A DNA stretch of 64,000 bases from Antennarius striatus (lineage: Eukaryota > Chordata > Actinopteri > Lophiiformes > Antennariidae): NCBI RefSeq assembly GCF_040054535.1, contig NC_090780.1:16711501-16775500 (forward strand), given 5' to 3'. A model generated the notes under the pieces. The model searched no databases, was not told the origin of the DNA, and worked only from the letters and a program-made list of their open reading frames with translations. This document shows, in pieces, positions 5,441 to 36,800 of this stretch (the first letter of the stretch is position 1; every line of letters begins with the position of its first letter). The translations under genes and the position numbers were made by a program.

Positions 5441-6195
5441 CTAATCATTATGGTAATCTGGAGTGAAGAGTTCTTCGCATGCTGATGTCACCATGGCAAT
5501 CAGTGCTATAAACTCTTTGAAGTCAATCTCCAAGTCTCCATTTTGGTCAAGATCGGCGAAGAGCTCATCCAGAGTTTCATTTTCATGGATTTTCTGCACA
5601 ACAAAAAAAGTGAATGTAAGTGAAACATTTCCAACACTGAATGCTACAGCACTCCTTCTTACACTGTAAGGATGAAAAAAGAACTGCGTTGATGGATAGA
5701 ACAAAACTTGTTTGAGGGTGATGATAGAGGACACTGTTGTTAGTTCTCTGCCCTAAGCTTTTCTCAAATGTCTGAGCTCTGCAGCATAACACAATAAAAG
5801 AACACGGTTAATGTGATGCTTTAGTAAGTATCTGAGGTTGAAGCAACTGCAATCATGTTGATGTACATGCACTCATCATCATCACATGTAAAATAGTCTG
5901 ACAATCCAAAAAATGGATGACAGACTATTTCTGTGTAGTTCAATGTTGAATTAAAGACTGATGAATGGATCCACCAACATCTGTATCTATTGAATACTTG
6001 CATGGTTTCTGTCGGCATTTCAAACATAAACATCCCAATATTCAAAGAATATCTTACCTTTATGAAGTTATTCATCTCATTGTTGATAAGTGCTTTAAGC
6101 TCTGCCTTCTTCAGCTTGCACTTCTGACCTGAATATTTATGAAAAACTCGAATAACGGTGAGCATGCCCTGTTCCAAGTCTGACATACTGTCCAT
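5441..6195 (-). CDS. s100b: S100B-like EF-hand calcium-binding protein
   Basis: Two coding exons on the minus strand: 6195(or 6186)-6058 and 5593-5441, joined after ...NNFIK with donor gtaaga and acceptor ttgttgtgcag. From the second Met (MSDLEQGM, the usual S100 start) the product is 93 residues, near the 92 of human S100B. Order: helix I; N-terminal pseudo-EF hand (YSGQKCKLKKAELKAL); hinge; canonical EF loop D-Q-N-G-D-L-E-I-D-F-K-E; helix IV with AMVTSACEELF, which closely resembles S100B. S100B is a dimeric calcium sensor that binds target peptides, best known in glia. The pseudo-EF loop is three residues shorter than in human S100B (SG-QKC-KLKK versus SG-REGDKH-KLKK). A GT donor at about 6329 (cttacc on the plus strand) marks a probable non-coding first exon just upstream, as is usual for S100 genes. 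The TTT CAT-proximal Met at 6195 is an alternative start. Confidence 0.82.
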
Positions 6196-6329
6196 CGAAG
6201 CCTGCAATGAGTGTTTACATTTATGCATTATATTTAAAATTGATGTATCCCCTAATTCATTATCATTCAAGAATATATTTTAAATGCATAGAAATGCATC
6301 AGTTATGTCAATCCTTTAGTATATCTTAC

Positions 6330-7660: not shown

Positions 7661-8083
7661 GTAAGCCCTTAAAAACCCGTTCCTCGGAATGCTGAGCATT
7701 ACATAACGTCATACGTACCTACACATCAATGTGTGTTATTTTTTTTTCTGTTTTGTGTTCTCTCCCATTTGATCTCACTGAAGCACAGAGCGGTTTAGTT
7801 ATCCAGTTTTGCATACTTGAATCGTAATCAAAACGACGAGTCAGTGATGATGGCGAGGCTTCTGTCTGTTTAATGTAAGAACCCCTGAACTGGTTCATGA
7901 GGCCGTGTTCCACCCTCACATGTCTTTTTTCACAAATGCCCTGTTTTCTTTTTGAGGCTATAATTAGCCCAGTATGTCAAAGCCTTACCTGCCTCGCCTC
8001 TTCTTTCTCACCCACTCTCTCACATTCACTTGAAGTTTCCATCTCTATGTTGACAAAATCCCCTTGTTTCCTTTTGTTCAGGC

Positions 8084-11000
8084 ATGGCTGATCTGCTGAG
8101 ACTGCTGCTCAGGGTAGCAGAGAAGGCTGCTAACGTGGCCCGGGTCTGCAGGCAGGAGGCTCCCCTCTTTCAGCTCCTTGTGCAAGAGAAAACTGGAGAT
8201 GACAAGAACAAGAAGTTTGTCCAAGACTTCAAAACACTTGCCGATGTGGTGATTCAGGAGATGATCCAGCATGATGTTGGTGCTCAGGTAGGATGTGTTG
8301 CTGAAATTTGGACTGTCAGAATGAACTGGAAGGTCTGTGTTTTTGATCCTAATCTGGTTCTGTCTTTTCCTTTGGTCAGTTCCCTGAGATGTGTGGCTTC
8401 ATTCATGGAGAGGAGTCCAATAAATTTGAAAATGGGCTAGGTAACATTTTACACTACGATTCTAAAGTTCCAGGTTCATTGTATATTAGTACGAAAGAAC
8501 TCTATGACCAAAAACAAGGCAAACATTGTTGACTAGCTAGTTGTCAGCTATATATGGTGGGCCCTATCTAAAAACACGTCATTTTTGCACTGTTATCAAT
8601 ATTCTTCCTCCTACTTGCCGCAAGTGAAATGAGGGGAGTATAAATGAGTGGGTTCCTCTCCATCTGTTACAAATAGTTTTTGAACCATAACTTTCTTTAA
8701 AAGTATTTTCTGGCTAACCTTTTTTTTTAAAAAACAACAACAACAACAACAGTGAAGTACTGAATTGTTCCATTTTGCTGTTTAGTGATAATGGTCGTTG
8801 AAAAGTTTTCCAGTTCCATAGTTACAATTTGGACCGATGCCAATGGTTGTTTTCATGGCCAGTGGTCAAGGATTCTGAGTATCTTGTATTTGTCAAAGCT
8901 TGGTATAAATTTGTTGGTTTTATAAAAACAGGAAAAACTGAAACCCTACAATTAATCATTTCCTGAATTCTTACCTGACCTCATCACATCAGGTTTTAGG
9001 AAAGTGTGAGTAATTCTTTTGTTACGTACTTTGTGTATCAAATATTTGAAGATACATTTTTCCTTTATTTAAACACCTGCCGATCACAGGGAGCACTTTT
9101 CTATGCCTAAGTCTTCTTTACATTTAAATACTTGTGTTCTTACCTAGGTTGCTGTCCACTATGATCACAGTTTGATCTGTGGGTCTCTGCCGCATTTGGA
9201 ATGACGTGTTTTTTTAATACAGCTTTTGTCCACTTACGTTATCATAGATAGTCTTATTGGTCCTTAAAGGGTAAATTACCAAAGCAAGTGCATGTCCTAC
9301 ATGTGGAGAATAGTTATTACTGTTATACAGAATTTTAAACATACTTTGATGCAAGTCTTCAAACTAGAAGTGTCCTGTATGTAATTTTGCACAGAGGATC
9401 TGTTTCCTGCCTGTGCATTATCATTACAAAGTGGATATCTTTATTACAGCAGAGGTGAAGGAGCCTCCTTTAGTAAACACTGCGGTCCCTCCAGTAGGTC
9501 ATGCAGGGAATGTGAAGTGTTGAGCAGTTTATGCAACATTCTTCCCTCAGTAACCAACTCTGAGGGCTCTAAAGTAATCCGCTACACAAAGCCAATCGTC
9601 TTTGACTTCATTTTTCAGGTTGTTGGGTTTTTTTTACTGGCTTTGAGTCCACTGTTCTTCACAAACCTCAGAATGCATAATATCTAAAGTTCTAATGCTT
9701 CACTCGCTCTGTGCCCAGGAGAGAGCGTGATCGTCACGGTGTGCAGCACAGAGGAGGAGACGGCAAAACTCCTGGCTTCTGTGCTGGATGATAACCACAC
9801 GGCAGCGTCTCTGCTAGCTCAAGCAATCCACCAGGACCCAGCAACCATAGACGCACACATGGACGACGTGGCAGTGCCCCTCAGCCCCTCTGAGCTCGGC
9901 ATCTGGATTGACCCCATAGGTGAAGGGCTGAGTGTTTTCAAGAATCCCGCATTGACCCAACAATTTGTTGAATCATAGAGCTGTCTGTAAAGCCTCAGCT
10001 GATTTTTGTCTTTGTTTTATGTCAAGATGCCACCAGTCAGTATATAGAGGGCCGGGAGGAGGTGCTCGAGGAAGGCCATCTGTTCCCTTCAGGTCTTCAC
10101 TGTGCTTTGGTCCTGATCGGGGTTTATCTCCTGAAAACAGGGGAACCCGTCATGGGCGTCATCAACCAGCCATTCAACTACAAAGATCCTGCTGGTGGCG
10201 GGTGAGTTAAAAAGAGGGAACATTTCTTTTTCTATTGTTTCTGACAGGGTTTCCCTTCAAACAACAGCCACTGCGTGTCAAACTTCACAGATTTATAATT
10301 TTATATGTATTTAAAAAAAATTAAACTTATATGAAACTTATGAAGTGAGATTAATTATATTTAATGATCTACATTTTTTCTTGAGCATAAACAAAAATCA
10401 TTGCAGTAAAAATGTTTTACTGTAATTTTTATCACAGTAAATTTTGAATATGATGGTCAATCATCATAAATGTAGTTATATTTTGAAGCAGCATCAACTA
10501 CAACAGCTCTGCCATAATATTTTGTTTATGGTGGAAATGAGTTGATTCTTTAATACTGTATGTTTGTTACCAAGATAACTGAACTAGATTGAGAAATGTA
10601 TTTAATACCTCCGAACATAGTCTTGTGTACTCCACAATCTATGACATCAATGATTAAAAAAATGTGCATCTATCAAACTAATCATAATAATCATACATCT
10701 CATGCTAGACTTCTATTTTAAGCTGTCCAACCTAAAATGCTTACAGGCTTTATCTCTTCCACTGATACCTGAAAAATGAAAAACTCAATTCCCAACCAAT
10801 TGTGTGCTTTCACAGCTGGAGGGGTAAACATTTCTGGGGTGTGTCTTGCGGTGGTGTCAATGTCTGCTCGGAGACCTGTCCCAAAGAGGGCCCTGGGGCG
10901 GGGCTGTCTGTGGTTCTGAGCTCCAGCGAGAAGCAGGTGGTGAAGGAAGCCTTGACCGCGCTGTGTGGCCCTGGCAAGCTGATGTACGCTTCTGGAGCTG

Positions 11001-15119: not shown

Positions 15120-18100
15120 TTACCTCTGGAAGGGTTTACGGACTTTCTTTCTTCTTCTGGGAGGTCTGCCACTTTCAGCCCACGTATCACTGGACTCTGG
15201 CCGGTGACCCCCAGGCATATAGAAACCTGTCTGGTCAGGAGGAGGGGAAAATGGGGGCACCCCTGAACCAGGTGGCTGGTGATGAGGCGGACCAGAAGGG
15301 AAAAAGCCCCCATTGGCAGCCATGTCGTTTGGAGGTCCCCCCTTGAAGATGCGATTGAAGAAGTCCTGCAGGTCTGCAGGGTTGGTTGGACCTGTGTGTT
15401 CTGAGGGGGTCCTGAATGGGAATTTAGGGAATTAAATTGGTCAGTTGGTTGCAATTTGAGCCATGAATGTTCTGTTAACATTATAATTACACAAGCTATC
15501 ATTAACAAAAGACTACTTGGAAAACGATCAGTAACACTAGAATGAGTTGTTTTGTCAGCAGAAAACAAAAAAACATTCAAAATTGATGTTATTTTTACAG
15601 GTCTAGGTTTACAGGTATTAAAATTGTAGACCTTTAAATAAACATTCTATTCAAATAATATTTTTAAAGCATGTCCTCATCTCTTTAAGTAATTGAGAGA
15701 GCATTATTTAAATTTATACAATCGTTTTCATGTTATGTCTGGAAGGCCAGACATAACATTTTAAAATCAGCATTAGCTGTTCCAAATACAGTGTGAATGT
15801 AATGTTCACCAAAACTAGTTGTCAGGCTCATGAAGGCAACACACCAAACCGAATATGAATAATACGAACTTACCTGTGTCGTGTGGGGTTGCTGTTGTTC
15901 TTTGAGCCAAAAGAGATGTGATAGGGTACACGATGGGTGTCGGGAGAAATTCTTATTCTCTGGCACCCTGCCCACTCTGAAACATGAGTTTTAATTTTTT
16001 ATTTTAATTTAAAATACTGTTTTTGATCCCCGAAGGGAAATTAAGAAAGTACTCTCTAGCTAATGATTCAAATGCATGCATACATATATATATTAGAGAG
16101 TACAGGCCCCTGTATCACAAACATACACAAGGGGGACTATAGGTATGCACGGGAGGTAGAGTGGCAGGCAGCTCCTTCTTGGTGCGCCTCAAATGAGCAA
16201 TTTGTAAAGGGGACGGCACCTTGCTCAAGGGCACCTCGGCAGTGCTCCAGAGGTGAGCTGACACCTCCCACTGTCAGCTACGGGTATTTTTTTGGGTGGG
16301 AGCGGGAATCGAACCACCGATCTTGAAATCATAGGACGACCTGCTCTACTGCCCGCTTTACCACTGAGCCACTGCCGCCCCACCAGTTGCATGACTAAGA
16401 ACAACACTGCTGTAGAAAGTACTTCTAATGCATGCACATGTTTCTCTGACCTGGAAAAACAGATGTCATGTGCGATGGGTAGTTTCATTAACTCGGTCAA
16501 ACTAAAGCTACTTGTGAATGAAATTAATCTTAGAAAGAGACCATGTTCACCTGTAATATCAAAAACTTTTCCATCCATACAGGCAAAGTATGTGATTCGT
16601 AGGCCCAACATGCTGGATTCAGCCCACAGGTCCCCCTCCTCAGCACTATGGCAACTATTACATTCTGCACAGAACCGGGCTTCAGCAGGTTCACGATCCA
16701 TCTCGAACCGCCTGCACATCCACGAGTCACAAAGGAAACAGCTGCTGTGAAAATCTACTACACAAGCAATGATTCAGCTGTGTGTGAACATCTAAGGTGT
16801 GTGCTAACATACTTGTGTTTGCCTTCGCACTTGGTGCACATCATAGTGTTCATGGCTTCCTTCAGGTCATCCTGCAGTTTGGTGAGAAACTCATTCATAG
16901 ATTTTGAGAGCTCTGTTGCTGCCATACGCTTCCTATTTAACAATGTGATAAACAAAAACAAACAACTGTCAATATTGAAATACAGACATTGAATAGTTTC
17001 AGAAAATGTATGTTATATTTATCAATACTATTTGCACATAATGAAATAGATTACACTTTATGAAAATAATGGAAGAACAATGTCCACTGAGGGGCTTATT
17101 CAGCACTAAAGAAAAAGAGGATGAGTAAAATGTTTAAAACGACACAATGATAGTCAATAAAAAATTTTCAAGACACTAGATTTCTTTAGTTTTCATTTTA
17201 TAATCAATATGCTCTGTAATAACCACGTTTTCTGAGTACTCACAACTCATATTCTCGCCGTGTCTCTGGGTTACTGACAATATCCCATGCAGCCCGCAGT
17301 ACTTTGAATGCCTCTCCAGCTCGTGGGTGTTTATTCTTATCTGGATGAACCTAAAAAATGAGATTAGAAGGAAAGCTTCTATTTGTAAAGGAGTAATTCT
17401 AATTCTTATCATTTTAGGTTTTCCACAAATGTATTTCATACAAACCTGGACAGCCAGCTGTCTGTAGGCCTTTTTCAGCTCAGTATCAGTGGCCTGCAGC
17501 TCCACACCAAGCACTGTGAAGGGGTCAAGTTCATCTTCTGGTACTTCAGCCAAAGCCAACAGTCTCTCAAGCTCTTGAACTGGTTGGGCTCGACCTGTAC
17601 GTCCAGGTGACTCAGAGCCAAACCGGGGTAAATGGCCATCTCTTCTGAACCTATTTTGGACTCTTTCAACAAGAGACACCACTCTTTTCCAAAACTTTGA
17701 CTCCTGAAAACTTGTCCAATAGCGTTGTCCCCTCTCCCCACCAAGGCGACCCAAGAAACCCTTTGCCCAATGGGTACTGAGAACAACCAATGCACAGAGA
17801 AGTCTAAAACAAGATAAGGCAGCTGTCTTAACCCACTTCACTGTCCGAACAATTTTAGACCTTAAGACCGTTCCAGTGCATTTTGTCCATCTTAGAATCC
17901 GGCTAGCATCGGCCTTCATCCCTGCTATGTCTGTGATCTTCAAAAGGAGATGCTGCCCTACGTTGTAGAGTTTCACAACTCCAGTCTCAACACATACGCC
18001 ACAATTGTGAGTTAAGGTGACAATAATCTCAATCATCATGTGGATGCAGGAGATGCACCAGAAGCTCAGTGACTCTGACAGCATCTCCTTGAAAGCCAAC

Positions 18101-18669
18101 AGAAGCTGATTGCCTGCCCGCCTGCGACCTCTGTTCTGCTGATAATGGTGATGGTGGTTACGCCTGCGGGCCTGTTTGTGTCGACTGCCACTTGACATGA
18201 CATTGCCTTTCTGCATTGCGGGAAAAGCACCTTGACTGTTCTGCTCTGAAAATAACCCACTGCTTCTGAGTCTGAATCGCCTTCCAGTTCCCTCATTCTT
18301 CCAGTCAGACTCGTCGTTCATGTGGTGCTCCTTTGCAGCATCATCCTCTTCTTGGTTAATAACATGTAAATTGTCAAGATCTACAGCGATGCCATTCTCA
18401 GACCCATCAGAAGCCTCCTCACAATCTTCTTTAGCCTCTGGAGATGTACCATACTTTGTATCACCAATTTCAGAGTCTTCAGGAGTTTCTGGATTTAGGG
18501 TGTCCTGAGATTTGAGATTGGCTCTTTTGTTCTCTTGCTCACAGTCGCCGTGCTTGTATCCACCCCCCCACTGACTAGAACAGGTGACTGAGTTAGACTC
18601 GCCCTCAGTCACCTCCTCATCAGTCTCTGTAAACCCATCTGTCTCCTTCTCAGCAGTTTCTTGCTCCAT
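15120..18669 (-). CDS. dnajc14: DnaJ homolog subfamily C member 14
   Basis: Six coding exons: 18669-17446, 17350-17244, 16932-16813, 16711-16551, 15976-15874 and 15411-15120, giving 668 residues (human 702). It is an ER-membrane J-domain co-chaperone (DRIP78) that helps membrane proteins leave the ER. Order: acidic Glu/Asp/Ser-rich N-terminus (about 1-160); a His/Arg-rich patch ([14 protein letters not shown]); hydrophobic membrane segments near 203-222 and 283-300; J domain about 378-445 with the HPD motif in [30 protein letters not shown] falling just after an intron; a four-Cys zinc-binding region (CTKCEG...CAECNSCH); and a basic tail ending [12 protein letters not shown], nearly identical to the mammalian C-terminus. 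The ATG follows an in-frame TTG-led stretch with no earlier ATG in frame. The intron between exons 4 and 5 holds a SINE. Confidence 0.96.
15995..16381 (-). mobile_element. tRNA-derived SINE (copy 1) in a dnajc14 intron
   Basis: Read on the minus strand it begins ggcggcagtggctcagtgg (pol III A box TGGCTCAGTGG) and has a perfect B box GGTTCGATTCC about 50 bases on. A conserved body follows (ctcccaccc, gctgacagtgggaggtgtcagctcacc, gcccttgagcaaggtgccgtcccc, caccaagaaggagctgcc). The 3' tail aatttcccttcggggatcaa resembles the 3' end of the LINE found elsewhere in the window. The tRNA-like head is not a working tRNA gene: no acceptor-stem pairing, and it continues into a SINE body. Confidence 0.8.
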
Positions 18670-18714
18670 GTTCTTTACAAGTGTTCGAATGAAGAACTGT
18701 GAAATTGGAATTTC

Positions 18715-18873
18715 CTGCAAGATGATATCCTAGATCCATACGATGTGGCAATGTTTTCCCCAGACTCTCTTTTTAAAGCGAGACTGGGGAATCCTGAAGG
18801 TCGGTCTCAGGTCCACCATATCTGCGACTCTTCCAGGTTTCACATCATCTCACATCATGTTCCAATTTGTTAT
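18715..18873 (-). other. dnajc14 5' UTR segment with upstream ORF
   Basis: An acceptor (ttttcag on the minus strand, just above 18873) opens a segment running to the dnajc14 ATG. It contains an ATG at 18819 opening a 29-codon frame that ends at 18730, 60 bases before the main start. A second acceptor-like site (catcttgcag, ending at 18715) would remove this frame from the message. Which form is used cannot be decided from sequence. Confidence 0.45.
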
Positions 18874-30484: not shown

Positions 30485-31861
30485 ATGGTGTGTTAACCAT
30501 GTTAACCATGGTGTGTTCAATAGTGTTCCAACAGACATTTGCAATATGAAACGATTGTGAGAGATGAATGGAATAATAATAGAACTCAGGAGCTCATAGT
30601 GTTACCTCTGTTCTATTCAAATTGCACCTTTATTCTTCGTCTGAAGCTTCCTGAAATGATTTCTGACAGTTTGTGCTGAGATTCTTTACTATGCAAAACA
30701 ACTGCTGTCTCTGAGGCTGGACCCAGAAGATTTTACAGGTGGAAAAGCAGATGTGACGTTCCTGGGTTCAGCAGGAGCGTCATCATTCTTTATACACCCA
30801 TTAATTTCATTATAACATACAAATTCTAAAATCACATGAAACCCAATACAAGCATTGTCACAGTTAAAAAGAATGCCAAAAATAAAACATCTATTAGTCA
30901 GTACTACTAAACCCAACTCAACTATAACAACTTGATTATCCAACGCCATATGCTGTTCTAGTTTCATTACAGCTTGAGGGTGTAACAAATAGTTCGTTGA
31001 CATCTTAAACACAGCATAAAAAGCACAAAATGGTGTTGTGAAAATTATAGTTATCAAAATAATATTTCACTTCATGTTCAGTGTATGTAAAGTATGATGA
31101 GCAGAGTATTAGTTATCTAAGAATATATAGCTGTTGCTAGTTTGAACAAAGACTAGACTTGTGATGTGGACAGTAATAAATGTTACCAAGGTTCTCTCAG
31201 TGATGCATGTGCTTTAAAATAGTTGGGAAACAATTTTAAGAAAAACCCAACTCCTCGAGCTTTTTGTTGTTTGTAATTTGCATAGATCTAGATTTATAAT
31301 CTATAATTATGCTGATTTTACATTCTGGGAAGGTGGTGTGGATTCTCCGGAGGAAAACAAATCTACTACCTAGTTTAGGTAGGATTCTCAAAGTATCCTA
31401 CCAAAGCTGTGGACACCACTATGCAACTTAAATCACATCCTAGGGCTGTGACGTAACGCTCACAAATCTGAATCTCCAAGCATGAATAAACAAATGTCTC
31501 TATAAACCAATACTATAAATGCATGTCAAAAATTTTATAATTTGTATGAATTGAGCTTTCAGAAAATACTACAATCACTACTTCTACTACTACTGCATAA
31601 AATTTAAAGTGTATCTTCAATTTTTTAAACTTCAGCAAAACGCTGCCAGCTTTAGCACAGTTGATACGCTGTAAAAAAAAAACCGAAGTAAACCATTAAC
31701 TGGTTTATACCATTACAGGAGGTTTTCTTTGGGAGTGACCAGGATAGATAGGATCAGGAATGAGTACATCAGAGGGACAGCACATGATAGAGGTTTTGGA
31801 GATAAAGTCACAGGCCAGACTGAGATAGTTTGGACATGTCCAGAGGAGAGATAGTAAATAT

Positions 31862-32239
31862 ATGGGCGGCAGTGGCTCAGTGGTAGAACGGGCGGTAGAG
31901 CAGGTCGATCAATGATCTGAGATTGGCGGTTCGATTCCCGCTCCCACCCGAAAAAAACACCCGGAGGTGAGCTGACAGTGGGAGATGTCAGCTCACCTCC
32001 GGAGCACTGGTAGTGGGACCACTGCCGAGACGCCCTTGAAGGCGCCGTCCCCCTTGCAAGTTACTCATTTGGGGTGCACCAAGAAGGAGCTGCCCACCAT
32101 TCTAATTCCCACTGCATGGGTAAAGGCCTCCTGTGTGTGTTTGTGTGTTCATGGTTTGTACAAACTAACGTGTGTGTGATTTGATTTGAACTAGAGTGTG
32201 CCACTAATGTCCCTTTGGGAATTAATCGAGCATATAAAA

Positions 32240-32242
<3 letters not shown>
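31862..32242 (+). mobile_element. tRNA-derived SINE (copy 2), nested in a LINE
   Basis: Head gggcggcagtggctcagtgg (A box) and B box GGTTCGATTCC at about 31928-31938. The body matches copy 1, and the tail is tgtccctttgggaattaat. It carries a perfect 17-bp inverted repeat (31961-31977 with 31986-32002). An (AT)n array follows the tail. Confidence 0.82.

Positions 32243-32300
<58 letters not shown>
32243..32300. repeat. (AT)n microsatellite at a SINE 3' end
   Basis: 58 bases of AT directly after the SINE tail and before the resumed LINE. Likely grown from the SINE's A/T-rich tail or the target site. Confidence 0.95.
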
Positions 32301-32304
<4 letters not shown>

Positions 32305-32545
32305 AGAAGGATGCTGAGTTTTGAACTGCCAGGCAGGAGACCTAGAGGAAGACCAAAGAGCAGGTTTATGGATGTAGTGAAAGATATGGAGATAGTTGTT
32401 GTGAGAGAAGAGGATGCAGAAGACAGGGTTAGATGGAGGCAACTGATTCGCTGTGGTGACCCCTGAAGGGAAAAACTGAAAGGAGAAGAAGAAAATACCA
32501 TTACAGGATATCATTCTAATGCATCATTCTAATGCGGGATTCAGT

Positions 32546-33394
32546 CTAGGTGACGTGGGTGTAAAGGTGTCGTAGGAACTCCCCTCTGGTGGTTGTGTCT
32601 CCAGGGAAAGTTGCCTGGCAGAACTCACAAACATGTGACTGCAGCGCCACGTCCGACAGCAGCAATCCATCAGACTGGCTTGGAAAATGGCCAGTGAGTG
32701 ATGTGTTGCCTTCTGTAGGCATCTGACAACCAGAGACAACAATACATGGAGCATTTCAGGTTAAATCCAACACGGATTGGTAAACACCTGTCCACAGGTG
32801 GATGTATCTGTCAAGTCAAGAACCTACCCTCATTACTTGCATCGTCATATCTTCACTAAGATGATCTGTTTGCCACAGGTTTTTTGAAACTTTGGAAGAG
32901 AATCCTTGTGACACACAAGGGTCACAATGTAGTGATGGCACCGCATTTTGAGCTCCCCCCTGATTCTCTTTTTTCTGAAAAGGCCCGTCCACACTAAGCT
33001 GGGATATATCTTCAGCAAGGATATCTGAAAAAGTCCACATGTTTCTGGAGAGATGATCAACGCCCGAAGGTTCTGCAGGGTTCTGTACAGTGGCTGTTTG
33101 TAGACAAGGCTGTTCTTTGAGGTATGCAGGGATGTCTTGAACACATTTCACATGGGTGGACATCATATCGCTGAGCTCGCCATTAGGAACAGTGGATCCT
33201 GCAGGTAGGGTTTAACATGTGTTGAGAAAAGCAATCCAAACATGTTGATGTGCACTAGATTTCCAGCATCTTTCATACGGACCTTGATGTTTCTGCAGAG
33301 CTGTTGAGAGTTCATGCAACAAAGCTGCTTGCTTCAGGCAAAGTGACTTCAGATGAAGAAACTGTTCATACAGTTTATTGTAAGCGTCCTCCAT
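32546..33394 (-). CDS. TANK-like adaptor: N-terminal TBK1-binding-type helix and C-terminal zinc finger
   Basis: Three exons splice in phase: 33394-33283, 33198-32828 and 32722-32546, giving 219 residues. Residues about 3-32 (YNKLYEQFLHL, KSLCLKQAALLHEL) form an amphipathic helix resembling the TBD segment with which TANK, AZI2/NAP1 and TBKBP1/SINTBAD bind TBK1 and IKK-epsilon. The C-terminus, HVCEFCQATFPGD then GEFLRHLYTH, matches the last residues of mammalian TANK (a C2-H2, UBZ1-type zinc finger: Cys-x2-Cys ... His-x3-His). The middle is low in recognisable motifs; GPFQKKE loosely fits a TRAF-binding PxQxx(D/E) pattern. Human TANK is about 425 residues with the helix further in, so this protein is about half length. 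Role inferred: scaffold for TBK1/IKK-epsilon or TRAF in interferon/NF-kB signalling. The donor after exon 1 (gtccgt) is the weakest junction. Confidence 0.8.
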
Positions 33395-35640
33395 TGCAGT
33401 GGTTCAAAGGACTAGAGCTGGTAAACAGAGACAAATAAATGTATGGATGACAGGTGGGTGACATATGAAGAATATGGCTAGAGTCTATAGTCGTGCTATC
33501 AGCCCCAACAGAGTGTAACTTTCTCCAAGTAGGAAAGCATTTCTCCCTCTTAATACACATTTGAACCTCCTAGATTTATATTATGATCTGGATCTTGATC
33601 CAATTGTGAGTAGCAAAAGAACATGTGGCATTATCCATGTCAAGGTACTTCATTTTATCTCACAATCTGAAGACATTGGGAAAAGTGATTTAGAATAAAC
33701 ATCTGTACCAGGAACTGCCATAAGAAAACAACTTCCTTGGTCCAAAATCCACCAGAAACACCACTACACAGTAATTATCAAAATCCACAGCAAAAACAGA
33801 TGCATTTATTTGGATGAGATTTGCTCCTGAAATAGGATTTACATATTTTTTTCTGGTGTTCAACAACTGTATTTAGCATTTTTCTCCACTCACTCAGGTT
33901 ATAAATTTAATTTCTTTTCCATTATCATACAATATATTATGTTATGTAGTATATCCAACTTACACACAGGGAGATAGCAAACAGCTGCTCTGGCAGTTTG
34001 GGATACCTTGTATTTCCTTGCTGTGCTCAGGGCTTCTATCTATCGAACCTCACAAATAAAGAAGCTTAATGGAGAAGCGTCAGACATTGCCTCAGAATAA
34101 ATTAATCCAGACTCACAATCTTTCCACGACACACCTTAACGAGTTTGTGATGGAGAAATCGATTCTTCAGATGACTCTTTTCCAAACACGATGGCTTGTA
34201 ATAAGAGTCTGCGTCCTCCCAGCTGAGCTAATAGGACTGCAGCTCTATTCATGTAACGACACAGATGCTTCTTTGGAAAGTGTTCAAAATGAAGAACCAG
34301 CTCTTGAAAATAGGGAAGTGAAACTTTTGTAGTATTAAAAGGAACTTTGTGGTCACCTGAAACTGTTTCATGAGTCAAACACAGCATTTTTTTAAAGTAG
34401 ACAGCACATTTAATTTTGGGTTTATACTTTGTATGTAATGCTTCACAGCTTTCCATCATGCTGAAAGATTTTAAAATTACCTAACTGATTTTGCACTGAA
34501 AGTGTCAGCCTCTACATCTTTGTTCTGACCTGGCTTGTGTTGATATTGTGATTTTCTTGATCAGATTCCACTGATCTCAGATATGTTGTGAAAAAATTAG
34601 AATACCCTACTACTGTACTTCTGAATGACTAAATTATTTTTTCAATTGGGATAAAAACCGATCATGATATCAAAACCCCACGCAGAAAGGATTTGAACCC
34701 AAAACCTTGTGCATCACTGCTGCCCTGTCCTTATCAGCATTACTGTTATTATAAATGTTATAACAACATAAATGGAGCTTATTCGACTCATTATCCATAC
34801 TGTTAGGTTAGATAAATGCATAAACCAAATCATTTAACAGTTCATCTCACATTTAGCACACATTGTGAAGTGTGTTGTACTTTCACTCTGATCATTTTAC
34901 ACGTCAGGTGTGAGGGAACCTCGTGGTTTTAAATGCCCGTGTTTAACCTCAGCTTCCAAACTTTTTTTCATTTCCGACTTTACATGAATCACGATTGTGT
35001 AATTTTCTCAGTTAGTGGAAACTTAGAGTCACGCCTGAGTTTCTTAACTTGAGCTCTGTGTCACTGAGAAACGCTGAACTCTCCCCTGAGGACGTTTTCA
35101 TTTTTTAAAAAATATTTAAAAGAAATCAGACTTATGTCTGTTGAACATGTCTTTGACTCACGTTAAATAAAAAAGTCTTACATTTCAAGTGATCGCAGCG
35201 ACTCGTGATACGAATATCAATCCTTTCCGTGGACGAACGAGTCGAGATCCGCGTTTTACTTTGATGACGTCACAACACCCACCTGAACACGACACACCTG
35301 CAAAATAAAACTTCCTGTCGAACAAGGATCCCTTCAAAAATAAGACGCCTGTATTTTGAGAGGTGAATAGGAATTTTTAAAGGAGATTTTCAAACTGAAA
35401 CTGGTTTAAGCTCAAAATGATTTTAGTATCGAGTTAATCAGCATCGTATGGACAATTAAATTAATCACCAAAATAATCCACTAATAACAGGATGTAAAAC
35501 TGGGGGTTGTTTTTAAACAAGCTGTAAGACTGGAATTTCACTTCTATTTTCTCTTTAATTTATTTCATATCATTGTAATCTAATTTAAAATCTATGTGGT
35601 AATTTGAAATGTAGAATATGAACTCCCCTCAGATCCAAAA
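33395..35640. other. upstream region of the TANK-like gene
   Basis: An acceptor-like ctctag lies 17 bases before the TANK-like ATG, so at least one non-coding exon probably lies upstream. A perfect CRE, TGACGTCA, occurs at 35265-35272 in a CpG-containing patch (35200-35300) followed by E-box/T-box-like cacacacctg words. This is the best promoter candidate. No other gene seen. Confidence 0.35.

Positions 35641-35696: not shown

Positions 35697-36800
<1,104 letters not shown>

What the first reader, a model, noticed from the sequence alone, without database searches (positions are those of the whole stretch)
32546..33394. Compact TANK-like gene beside nr4a1: probable ohnologue of TANK with a reduced architecture
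Three in-phase exons encode 219 residues: a TBK1-binding-type helix at the very N-terminus and a C-terminal zinc finger (HVCEFCQATFPGD...GEFLRHLYTH) that matches the end of mammalian TANK. Human TANK is about twice as long, with its coiled coil ahead of the TBD. In human, TANK lies on 2q not far from NR4A2, and further along 2q are INPP1 and NAB1. Here the gene lies between nab2 and nr4a1, the 12q13 paralogues. That places it as a genome-duplication partner of TANK on the NR4A1/NAB2 side, apparently without a mammalian counterpart. It keeps only the kinase-binding and zinc-finger ends, so it could be a minimal or competing TBK1/IKK-epsilon adaptor in fish innate immunity.
Basis: partly seen in the sequence, partly recalled or inferred. 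Interest (0 to 1): 0.75.

Follow-up and report, generated by a model that had tools for sequence, protein, structure and literature searches.

The report
A stripped-down fourth TANK-family gene
A small fish gene next to nr4a1 carries only the kinase-binding and zinc-finger end of the immune adaptor TANK, and its exon structure and chromosomal setting suggest a fourth, coil-less member of the TANK/NAP1/SINTBAD family, separate from the fish's ordinary tank gene.

Summary
On the minus strand, exons 33394-33283, 33198-32828 and 32722-32546 encode 219 residues. The N-terminal helix resembles the TBK1-binding helices of this genome's own tank, tbkbp1 and azi2: it ranks first of 32,231 stop-free 27-mers in the window. 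It has Leu at the four NAP1 contact positions named in the TBK1 co-crystal paper. The C-terminal finger shares 18 of 27 residues with recalled human TANK. Intron phases equal those of the last three tank exons. An in-frame TGA just upstream of the ATG argues that the coiled coil is truly absent. The ordinary tank gene, with all its parts, is on contig C12, between rbms and T-box genes. azi2 and tbkbp1 also sit near T-box genes, and an rbms gene lies 0.53 Mb from the window gene. Best reading: a fourth genome-duplication paralogue of this adaptor family, reduced to TBD plus finger, probably a non-scaffolding TBK1/IKK-epsilon binder. Only one genome was reachable. Transcription, orthologues, a tree, absence in mammals and binding are untested.

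The parts
33283..33394 (-). Exon 1 (coding part): ATG and TBK1-binding-type helix; phase-1 donor AAG|GTCCGT
33305..33385 (-). 27-residue TBD core, residues 4-30; Leu at the positions of NAP1 L226, L233, L244, L247
   Evidence: paper PMC5027247 passages
33404..33406 (-). In-frame TGA upstream of the ATG; no AG between it and the ATG
33395..33417 (-). Probable end of the 5' untranslated region, following an acceptor-like CAG at percentile 0.953 (suggests an upstream non-coding exon; not shown)
33199..33282 (-). Intron 1, 84 bp, phase 1
32828..33198 (-). Exon 2: divergent middle region, phase 1 to phase 0, counterpart of tank's PIQCTD exon by position and phases
32723..32827 (-). Intron 2, 105 bp, phase 0
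32546..32722 (-). Exon 3: TANK-like zinc-finger exon with stop codon TGA
32555..32629 (-). Zinc finger C-x2-C-x16-H-x3-H, residues 193-217

Best explanation
A real, compact protein-coding gene of the TANK / AZI2 (NAP1) / TBKBP1 (SINTBAD) family of TBK1 and IKK-epsilon adaptors, most likely the fourth paralogue of that family from early vertebrate genome duplication, kept on the rbms/nab/nr4a side. It has the counterparts of the last three tank exons: TBK1-binding helix, divergent middle, zinc finger. The coiled-coil exons are gone and translation starts at the TBD exon. Inferred mechanism: the helix docks on the C-terminal helix of TBK1/IKK-epsilon as the NAP1 helix does and so competes with TANK, NAP1, SINTBAD and optineurin; the finger takes the bound kinase to a ubiquitin-type or other partner. 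Without coiled coil and recognisable TRAF motif it would hold or redirect kinase rather than scaffold it, so a tuner or inhibitor is more likely than an activator. Shown here: gene model, homology, intron phases, chromosomal setting. Inferred: expression, binding, competition, finger ligand, immune role. Odds given below are for the whole statement; I would put family membership alone near 0.9 and the tuner/inhibitor mechanism near 0.5.
For: Helix score 85 against 34 for the next of 32,231 27-mers and 0 of 100,000 shuffles; Leu at four of four NAP1 contact positions, with the NAP1 helix confirmed by PDB 5ep6. Finger 18 of 27 to recalled human TANK. Phase 1 after the TBD exon and phase 0 before the finger exon as in tank; the phase-1 donor falls at the 16th residue after the conserved Gln in both (my count), at the 15th in tbkbp1 and the 12th in azi2. 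Exon lengths 112/371/177 nt against 119/398/171 in tank. In-frame TGA upstream of ATG. tank, azi2 and tbkbp1 lie near T-box genes, tank and azi2 also near rbms genes, the window gene 0.53 Mb from one. Papers, passages only: adaptors compete for TBK1 (PMC3169550; PMC11564117); NAP1 215-254 alone binds the TBK1 C-terminal domain (PMC5027247).
Against: No transcript, orthologue, tree, selection test or structure model. Pfam does not recognise either domain. Five other 27-mers of the window fit a looser version of the contact pattern. Helix (nearest tbkbp1, 10 of 27) and finger (nearest human TANK) point to different sisters. No T-box match on C5 among 28 listed. The C5 rbms is not cleanly RBMS2: C-terminal pieces favour it, the chained total slightly favours RBMS1. 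PMC11576971 (passage) argues that TANK and AZI2 are not simply products of gene duplication.
Confidence: 0.68

Rival explanations
1. A teleost-specific (third-round) or later duplicate of tank that lost its first exons and lies in the nab/nr4a region by rearrangement.
For: The finger is TANK-like (18 of 27 to recalled human TANK, 9 to tank C12) and the last three exons share tank's phases.
Against: The helix is no closer to tank (6 of 27) than to azi2 (6) and less close than to tbkbp1 (10). The gene has its own rbms gene at 0.53 Mb and the setting fits the paralogous chromosome. These columns are few, so this is not excluded.
Confidence: 0.2
2. A decaying relic or pseudogene of the family that is still open by chance.
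For: No expression evidence; loss of the N-terminal exons; middle exon hardly alignable; uninformative codon usage.
Against: Three exons open in matching phases with acceptable splice sites, metal ligands and four contact leucines intact, in a paralogue that must be old given its divergence.
Confidence: 0.08
3. The ordinary tank orthologue of this fish with a misread N-terminus.
For: TANK-like finger.
Against: A complete tank with coil, TBD, PIQCTD and finger exons lies on C12 beside rbms and T-box genes; a TGA blocks in-frame extension upstream of the ATG.
Confidence: 0.02
4. An unrelated C2H2 gene with a chance amphipathic helix.
For: Only weak generic C2H2 matches in Pfam: zf-WIZ E 0.043, zf-C2H2_4 E 0.15.
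Against: Two family-specific domains in the right order plus two matching intron phases.
Confidence: 0.02

Closest known systems
TANK (here the genome's own tank on C12 and recalled human TANK)
   Same: TBD exon, middle exon and finger exon in the same order and phases; finger spacing and 18 of 27 finger residues of recalled human TANK
   Different: TANK has N-terminal coiled-coil exons and a PIQCTD TRAF motif; here both are missing, the aligned place reading HVKCVQ in a gap-dependent alignment. The helix is only 6-7 of 27 identical
TBKBP1 / SINTBAD (C21 here)
   Same: TBD followed by a phase-1 donor and a C-terminal finger exon starting in phase 0; closest helix, 10 of 27
   Different: An N-terminal coil match ahead of the TBD; finger reported by Pfam as autophagy-receptor type Zn-C2H2_12 and only 8 of 27 identical
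AZI2 / NAP1 (C9 here; human helix in PDB 5ep6)
   Same: TBD with the same four leucines in the human protein; phase-1 donor after the TBD
   Different: Coiled-coil exons ahead of the TBD; no finger found by pattern in the 8 kb read at the locus
Optineurin
   Same: Binds the same TBK1 C-terminal domain and competes with NAP1 (PMC5027247, passages)
   Different: Dimeric coiled-coil protein with its own ubiquitin-binding parts; not compared by sequence here

Membership tests
TANK / AZI2 / TBKBP1 TBK1-adaptor family | TBK1-binding helix (TBD) by sequence | tested here: met
   First of 32,231 27-mers, 0 of 100,000 shuffles; four of four contact leucines. Pfam's TBD model reports tank and tbkbp1 but not this helix or azi2's
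TANK / AZI2 / TBKBP1 TBK1-adaptor family | Phase-1 intron directly after the TBD exon | tested here: met
   Found in all four genes of this genome
TANK / AZI2 / TBKBP1 TBK1-adaptor family | Coiled coil ahead of the TBD | tested here: not met
   No credible coil exon in the window; in-frame TGA upstream of the ATG. Present in tank and azi2; an N-terminal piece also in tbkbp1. So a reduced relative, not a full member by architecture
TANK / AZI2 / TBKBP1 TBK1-adaptor family | Physical binding to TBK1 or IKK-epsilon | not testable with these tools
   Needs a bench assay
TANK orthologue | rbms1 and tbr1 neighbours | tested here: not met
   These flank tank on C12; the window gene has nab and NR4A neighbours
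TANK orthologue | TRAF-binding PIQCTD motif | tested here: not met
   Aligned place reads HVKCVQ (gap-dependent); the one other candidate, PFQKKE at residue 110, is of a kind that 18% of shuffles contain
TANK orthologue | TANK-type C-terminal zinc finger | tested here: met
   18 of 27 to recalled human TANK, same ligand spacing
Autophagy-receptor type finger (Pfam Zn-C2H2_12) | Score above Pfam cut-off | tested here: not met
   tbkbp1's finger passes (31.2 against 23.2 bits); this finger and tank's are not reported for that model
Early-vertebrate (2R) ohnologue set | Shared neighbouring gene families | tested here: met
   rbms near tank, azi2 and the window gene; T-box near tank, azi2 and tbkbp1, none listed on C5
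Early-vertebrate (2R) ohnologue set | Orthologue outside teleosts and a supporting tree | not testable with these tools
   No other vertebrate genome reachable

The most novel reading that the evidence does not exclude
Vertebrates began with four TBK1/IKK-epsilon adaptors, not three; this fish keeps the fourth as a coil-less natural competitor that sets how much kinase TANK, NAP1, SINTBAD and optineurin can scaffold, and mammals have lost it.
Probability: 0.38. Interest if true: 0.65.

Novelty: new variant of a known kind. Interest (0 to 1): 0.52.

Why it matters
TBK1 adaptors decide whether the kinase serves interferon induction, control of cell death or autophagy, and they compete for one docking site (PMC3169550, PMC11576971, PMC11564117; passages). 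A fourth member with only docking helix and finger would be a natural experiment on what the coiled coil adds, and a candidate regulator in fish antiviral immunity, where black carp TANK activates IKK-epsilon (PMC13353983, abstract and section 17). The shared rbms and T-box neighbours also suggest that TANK, AZI2 and TBKBP1 are one duplicated family, a point on which PMC11576971 leans the other way for TANK and AZI2 (passage).

Tried and rejected
Ordinary tank: rejected, tank is on C12. Chance helix: rejected by ranking and shuffles. Retrocopy: rejected, introns stand at family positions. N-terminal coil exons in the window: none credible; the best tblastn match, E 0.055, lies at 5.5 kb on the other strand. 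TRAF motif: chance-level only. Codon-usage scoring: uninformative. PSMD14, a recalled human neighbour of TANK, was not found at E 1e-3 in 220 kb around tank on C12. PDB search with the recalled TANK TRAF peptide: nothing. A family tree was not built: no other species is reachable and only about 54 columns are shared. Structure prediction of the finger exon never started. The inpp1 copy search did not complete. Paper searches for a description of such a gene: 'TANK, AZI2, TBKBP1, whole genome duplication' 0 papers; 'tank-like, zebrafish, TBK1' 0; 'TBKBP1, TBX21, AZI2, EOMES' 0. Searches listed 20 of 30, 20 of 120, 15 of 1,580, 8 of 9, 10 of 23 and 10 of 153 papers; none of the listed titles or abstract starts describes it. 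Public annotation of fish genes could not be checked, so the gene may already bear an automatic 'TANK-like' name.

Full report
What is there. The gene is on the minus strand of the window, which is bases 16,711,501-16,775,500 of contig C5 of a 548 Mb genome. Of two second donors in the same phase, AGG|GTAGGT scores better than CAA|GTAATG. A finger-exon query finds no second copy in the genome; the one other match is a C2H2 protein on C10 at E 0.44 (only the best candidates are scored there, and tank's own finger was not among them).

The N-terminal helix. Laid without gaps on the helices of this genome's tank (C12), tbkbp1 (C21) and azi2 (C9), it scores 85; the next of 32,231 stop-free 27-mers of the window scores 34, and 0 of 100,000 shuffles reach 85. 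An earlier version with recalled human TANK in place of azi2 gave 82 against 37. Identities of 27: tbkbp1 10, human NAP1 9, recalled human TBKBP1 9, recalled human TANK 7, tank 6, azi2 6. PMC5027247 (passages) reports that L226Q, L233Q and L244Q of NAP1 weaken or abolish TBK1 binding and that L247 forms a further layer. The NAP1 helix I had recalled was confirmed over 39 residues by PDB 5ep6, and the window protein has Leu at all four places (numbering by my count from the paper's construct 215-254). Five other 27-mers of the window fit a looser pattern, so the pattern alone is no proof. Pfam's TBD model reports tank and tbkbp1 but neither this helix nor azi2's.

The zinc finger. The last exon matches recalled human TANK at 54% over 48 columns, E 4.4e-8 in a small local database. 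The finger shares 18 of 27 residues with recalled human TANK, 9 with tank C12 and 8 with tbkbp1; tank C12 shares 10 with recalled human TANK and has a shorter loop. So this gene keeps the more TANK-like finger of the two.

Gene plan. The last three exons of tank C12 are 119, 398 and 171 nt, with phase 1 after the TBD exon and phase 0 before the finger exon. The window gene has 112 (from the ATG), 371 and 177 nt and the same phases. The phase-1 donor falls at the 16th residue after the conserved Gln in both, at the 15th in tbkbp1 and the 12th in azi2 (my counts). tbkbp1's finger exon also starts in phase 0. The middle exons hardly align; the place of tank's PIQCTD reads HVKCVQ in a gap-dependent alignment.

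Missing N-terminus. The codons before the ATG are TGA ACC ACT GCA, with no AG between TGA and ATG. An acceptor-like CAG lies upstream of that TGA (percentile 0.953), so any exon joined there is cut off in frame. A coding exon could join only inside the TBD exon, for instance at the weak ATGGAG|GAC (percentile 0.33). Coil exons of tank and recalled AZI2 find nothing credible in the window. The protein therefore very likely starts at the TBD, though RNA is needed to prove it.

Which gene it is not. tank is on C12 at about 12.652-12.655 Mb with coil, TBD, PIQCTD and finger exons, between an rbms gene (12.625-12.635 Mb) and a T-box gene (12.671-12.672 Mb); I recall the human order RBMS1-TANK-TBR1.

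Chromosomal setting. azi2 is on C9 around 8.735-8.743 Mb, about 24 kb or more from a T-box gene (8.710-8.712) and 0.1 Mb from an rbms gene (8.843-8.923). tbkbp1 is on C21 around 12.987-13.003 Mb, about 36 kb from a T-box gene (12.946-12.951). C14 has a further rbms (1.43-1.50 Mb) and T-box gene (1.62 Mb). The window gene is 0.53 Mb from an rbms gene on C5. With six strong rbms sites in 548 Mb, such nearness by chance is of the order of 1% (my arithmetic; rbms was chosen beforehand from recalled human synteny). None of the 28 T-box matches listed is on C5. Typing the C5 rbms is not clean: its C-terminal pieces favour recalled RBMS2 (205 against 150 bits, my sums), the chained total slightly favours RBMS1 (297.5 against 286.9); C2 favours RBMS2, C12 RBMS1, C1 slightly RBMS1. 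The nab gene is one of two found in the genome, the other on C24. I read it as nab2 and the nuclear receptor as nr4a1 from recalled human sequences; the ligand-binding exon alone scores 215 bits to NR4A2 and 211 to NR4A1. Together the three known adaptors and this gene look like one duplicated set with this gene as the fourth. PMC11576971 (passage) holds that TANK and AZI2 differ too much to be simple duplicates; the shared neighbours argue for common descent.

How it most likely works. In print, TANK, SINTBAD and NAP1 compete for coiled-coil 2 of TBK1 (PMC3169550, passages). NAP1 215-254 alone binds the TBK1 C-terminal domain at about 0.72 uM in a two-plus-two bundle without a NAP1 dimer site (PMC5027247, passages). 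NAP1 restrains optineurin by taking its TBK1 (PMC11564117, passages). A coil-less protein can thus be expected to bind the kinase without clustering it. I favour a competitor or tuner that carries TBK1/IKK-epsilon to whatever the finger binds. An activating adaptor remains possible: black carp TANK enhances IKK-epsilon (PMC13353983, abstract and section 17). None of this was tested for the present protein.

Limits. One genome was reachable. No transcript, orthologue, tree, selection test or structure model was obtained. Absence in mammals is recalled, not tested. The gene may already carry an automatic name in public annotation.

Noticed in passing
G000 C12:12654796-12654966 (tank's last exon, in L004): The ordinary tank of this fish has a shortened finger (11 residues between the second Cys and first His, against 16 in recalled human TANK), while the window gene keeps the human-like spacing. 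Finger duty may have shifted between the two genes.
   Followed up: partly
window 8054-9975, + strand: Exons that I read as inpp1 (recalled) lie upstream of the nab gene; human INPP1 lies near NAB1, not NAB2, as recalled. A search for further inpp1 copies did not complete.
   Followed up: no
window 16231-18729, - strand: A Jiv90 domain and a weak, below cut-off DnaJ match suggest dnajc14, in recalled human 12q13 company.
   Followed up: partly
window 5447-6276, - strand: S100-type EF-hand gene in two exons.
   Followed up: no
window 31500-32545, downstream of the gene: Repeat-like sequence with an AT dinucleotide array; no AATAAA or ATTAAA on the gene strand in this stretch, so the 3' end of the transcript is unclear.
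   Followed up: partly
window 35700-36025: Long tetranucleotide array (GATG/GATA units) between the gene and nr4a1.
   Followed up: no
G000 C14:1.43-1.62 Mb: A second rbms plus T-box pair without a detected TBK1 adaptor, probably the teleost duplicate of the azi2 region.
   Followed up: no
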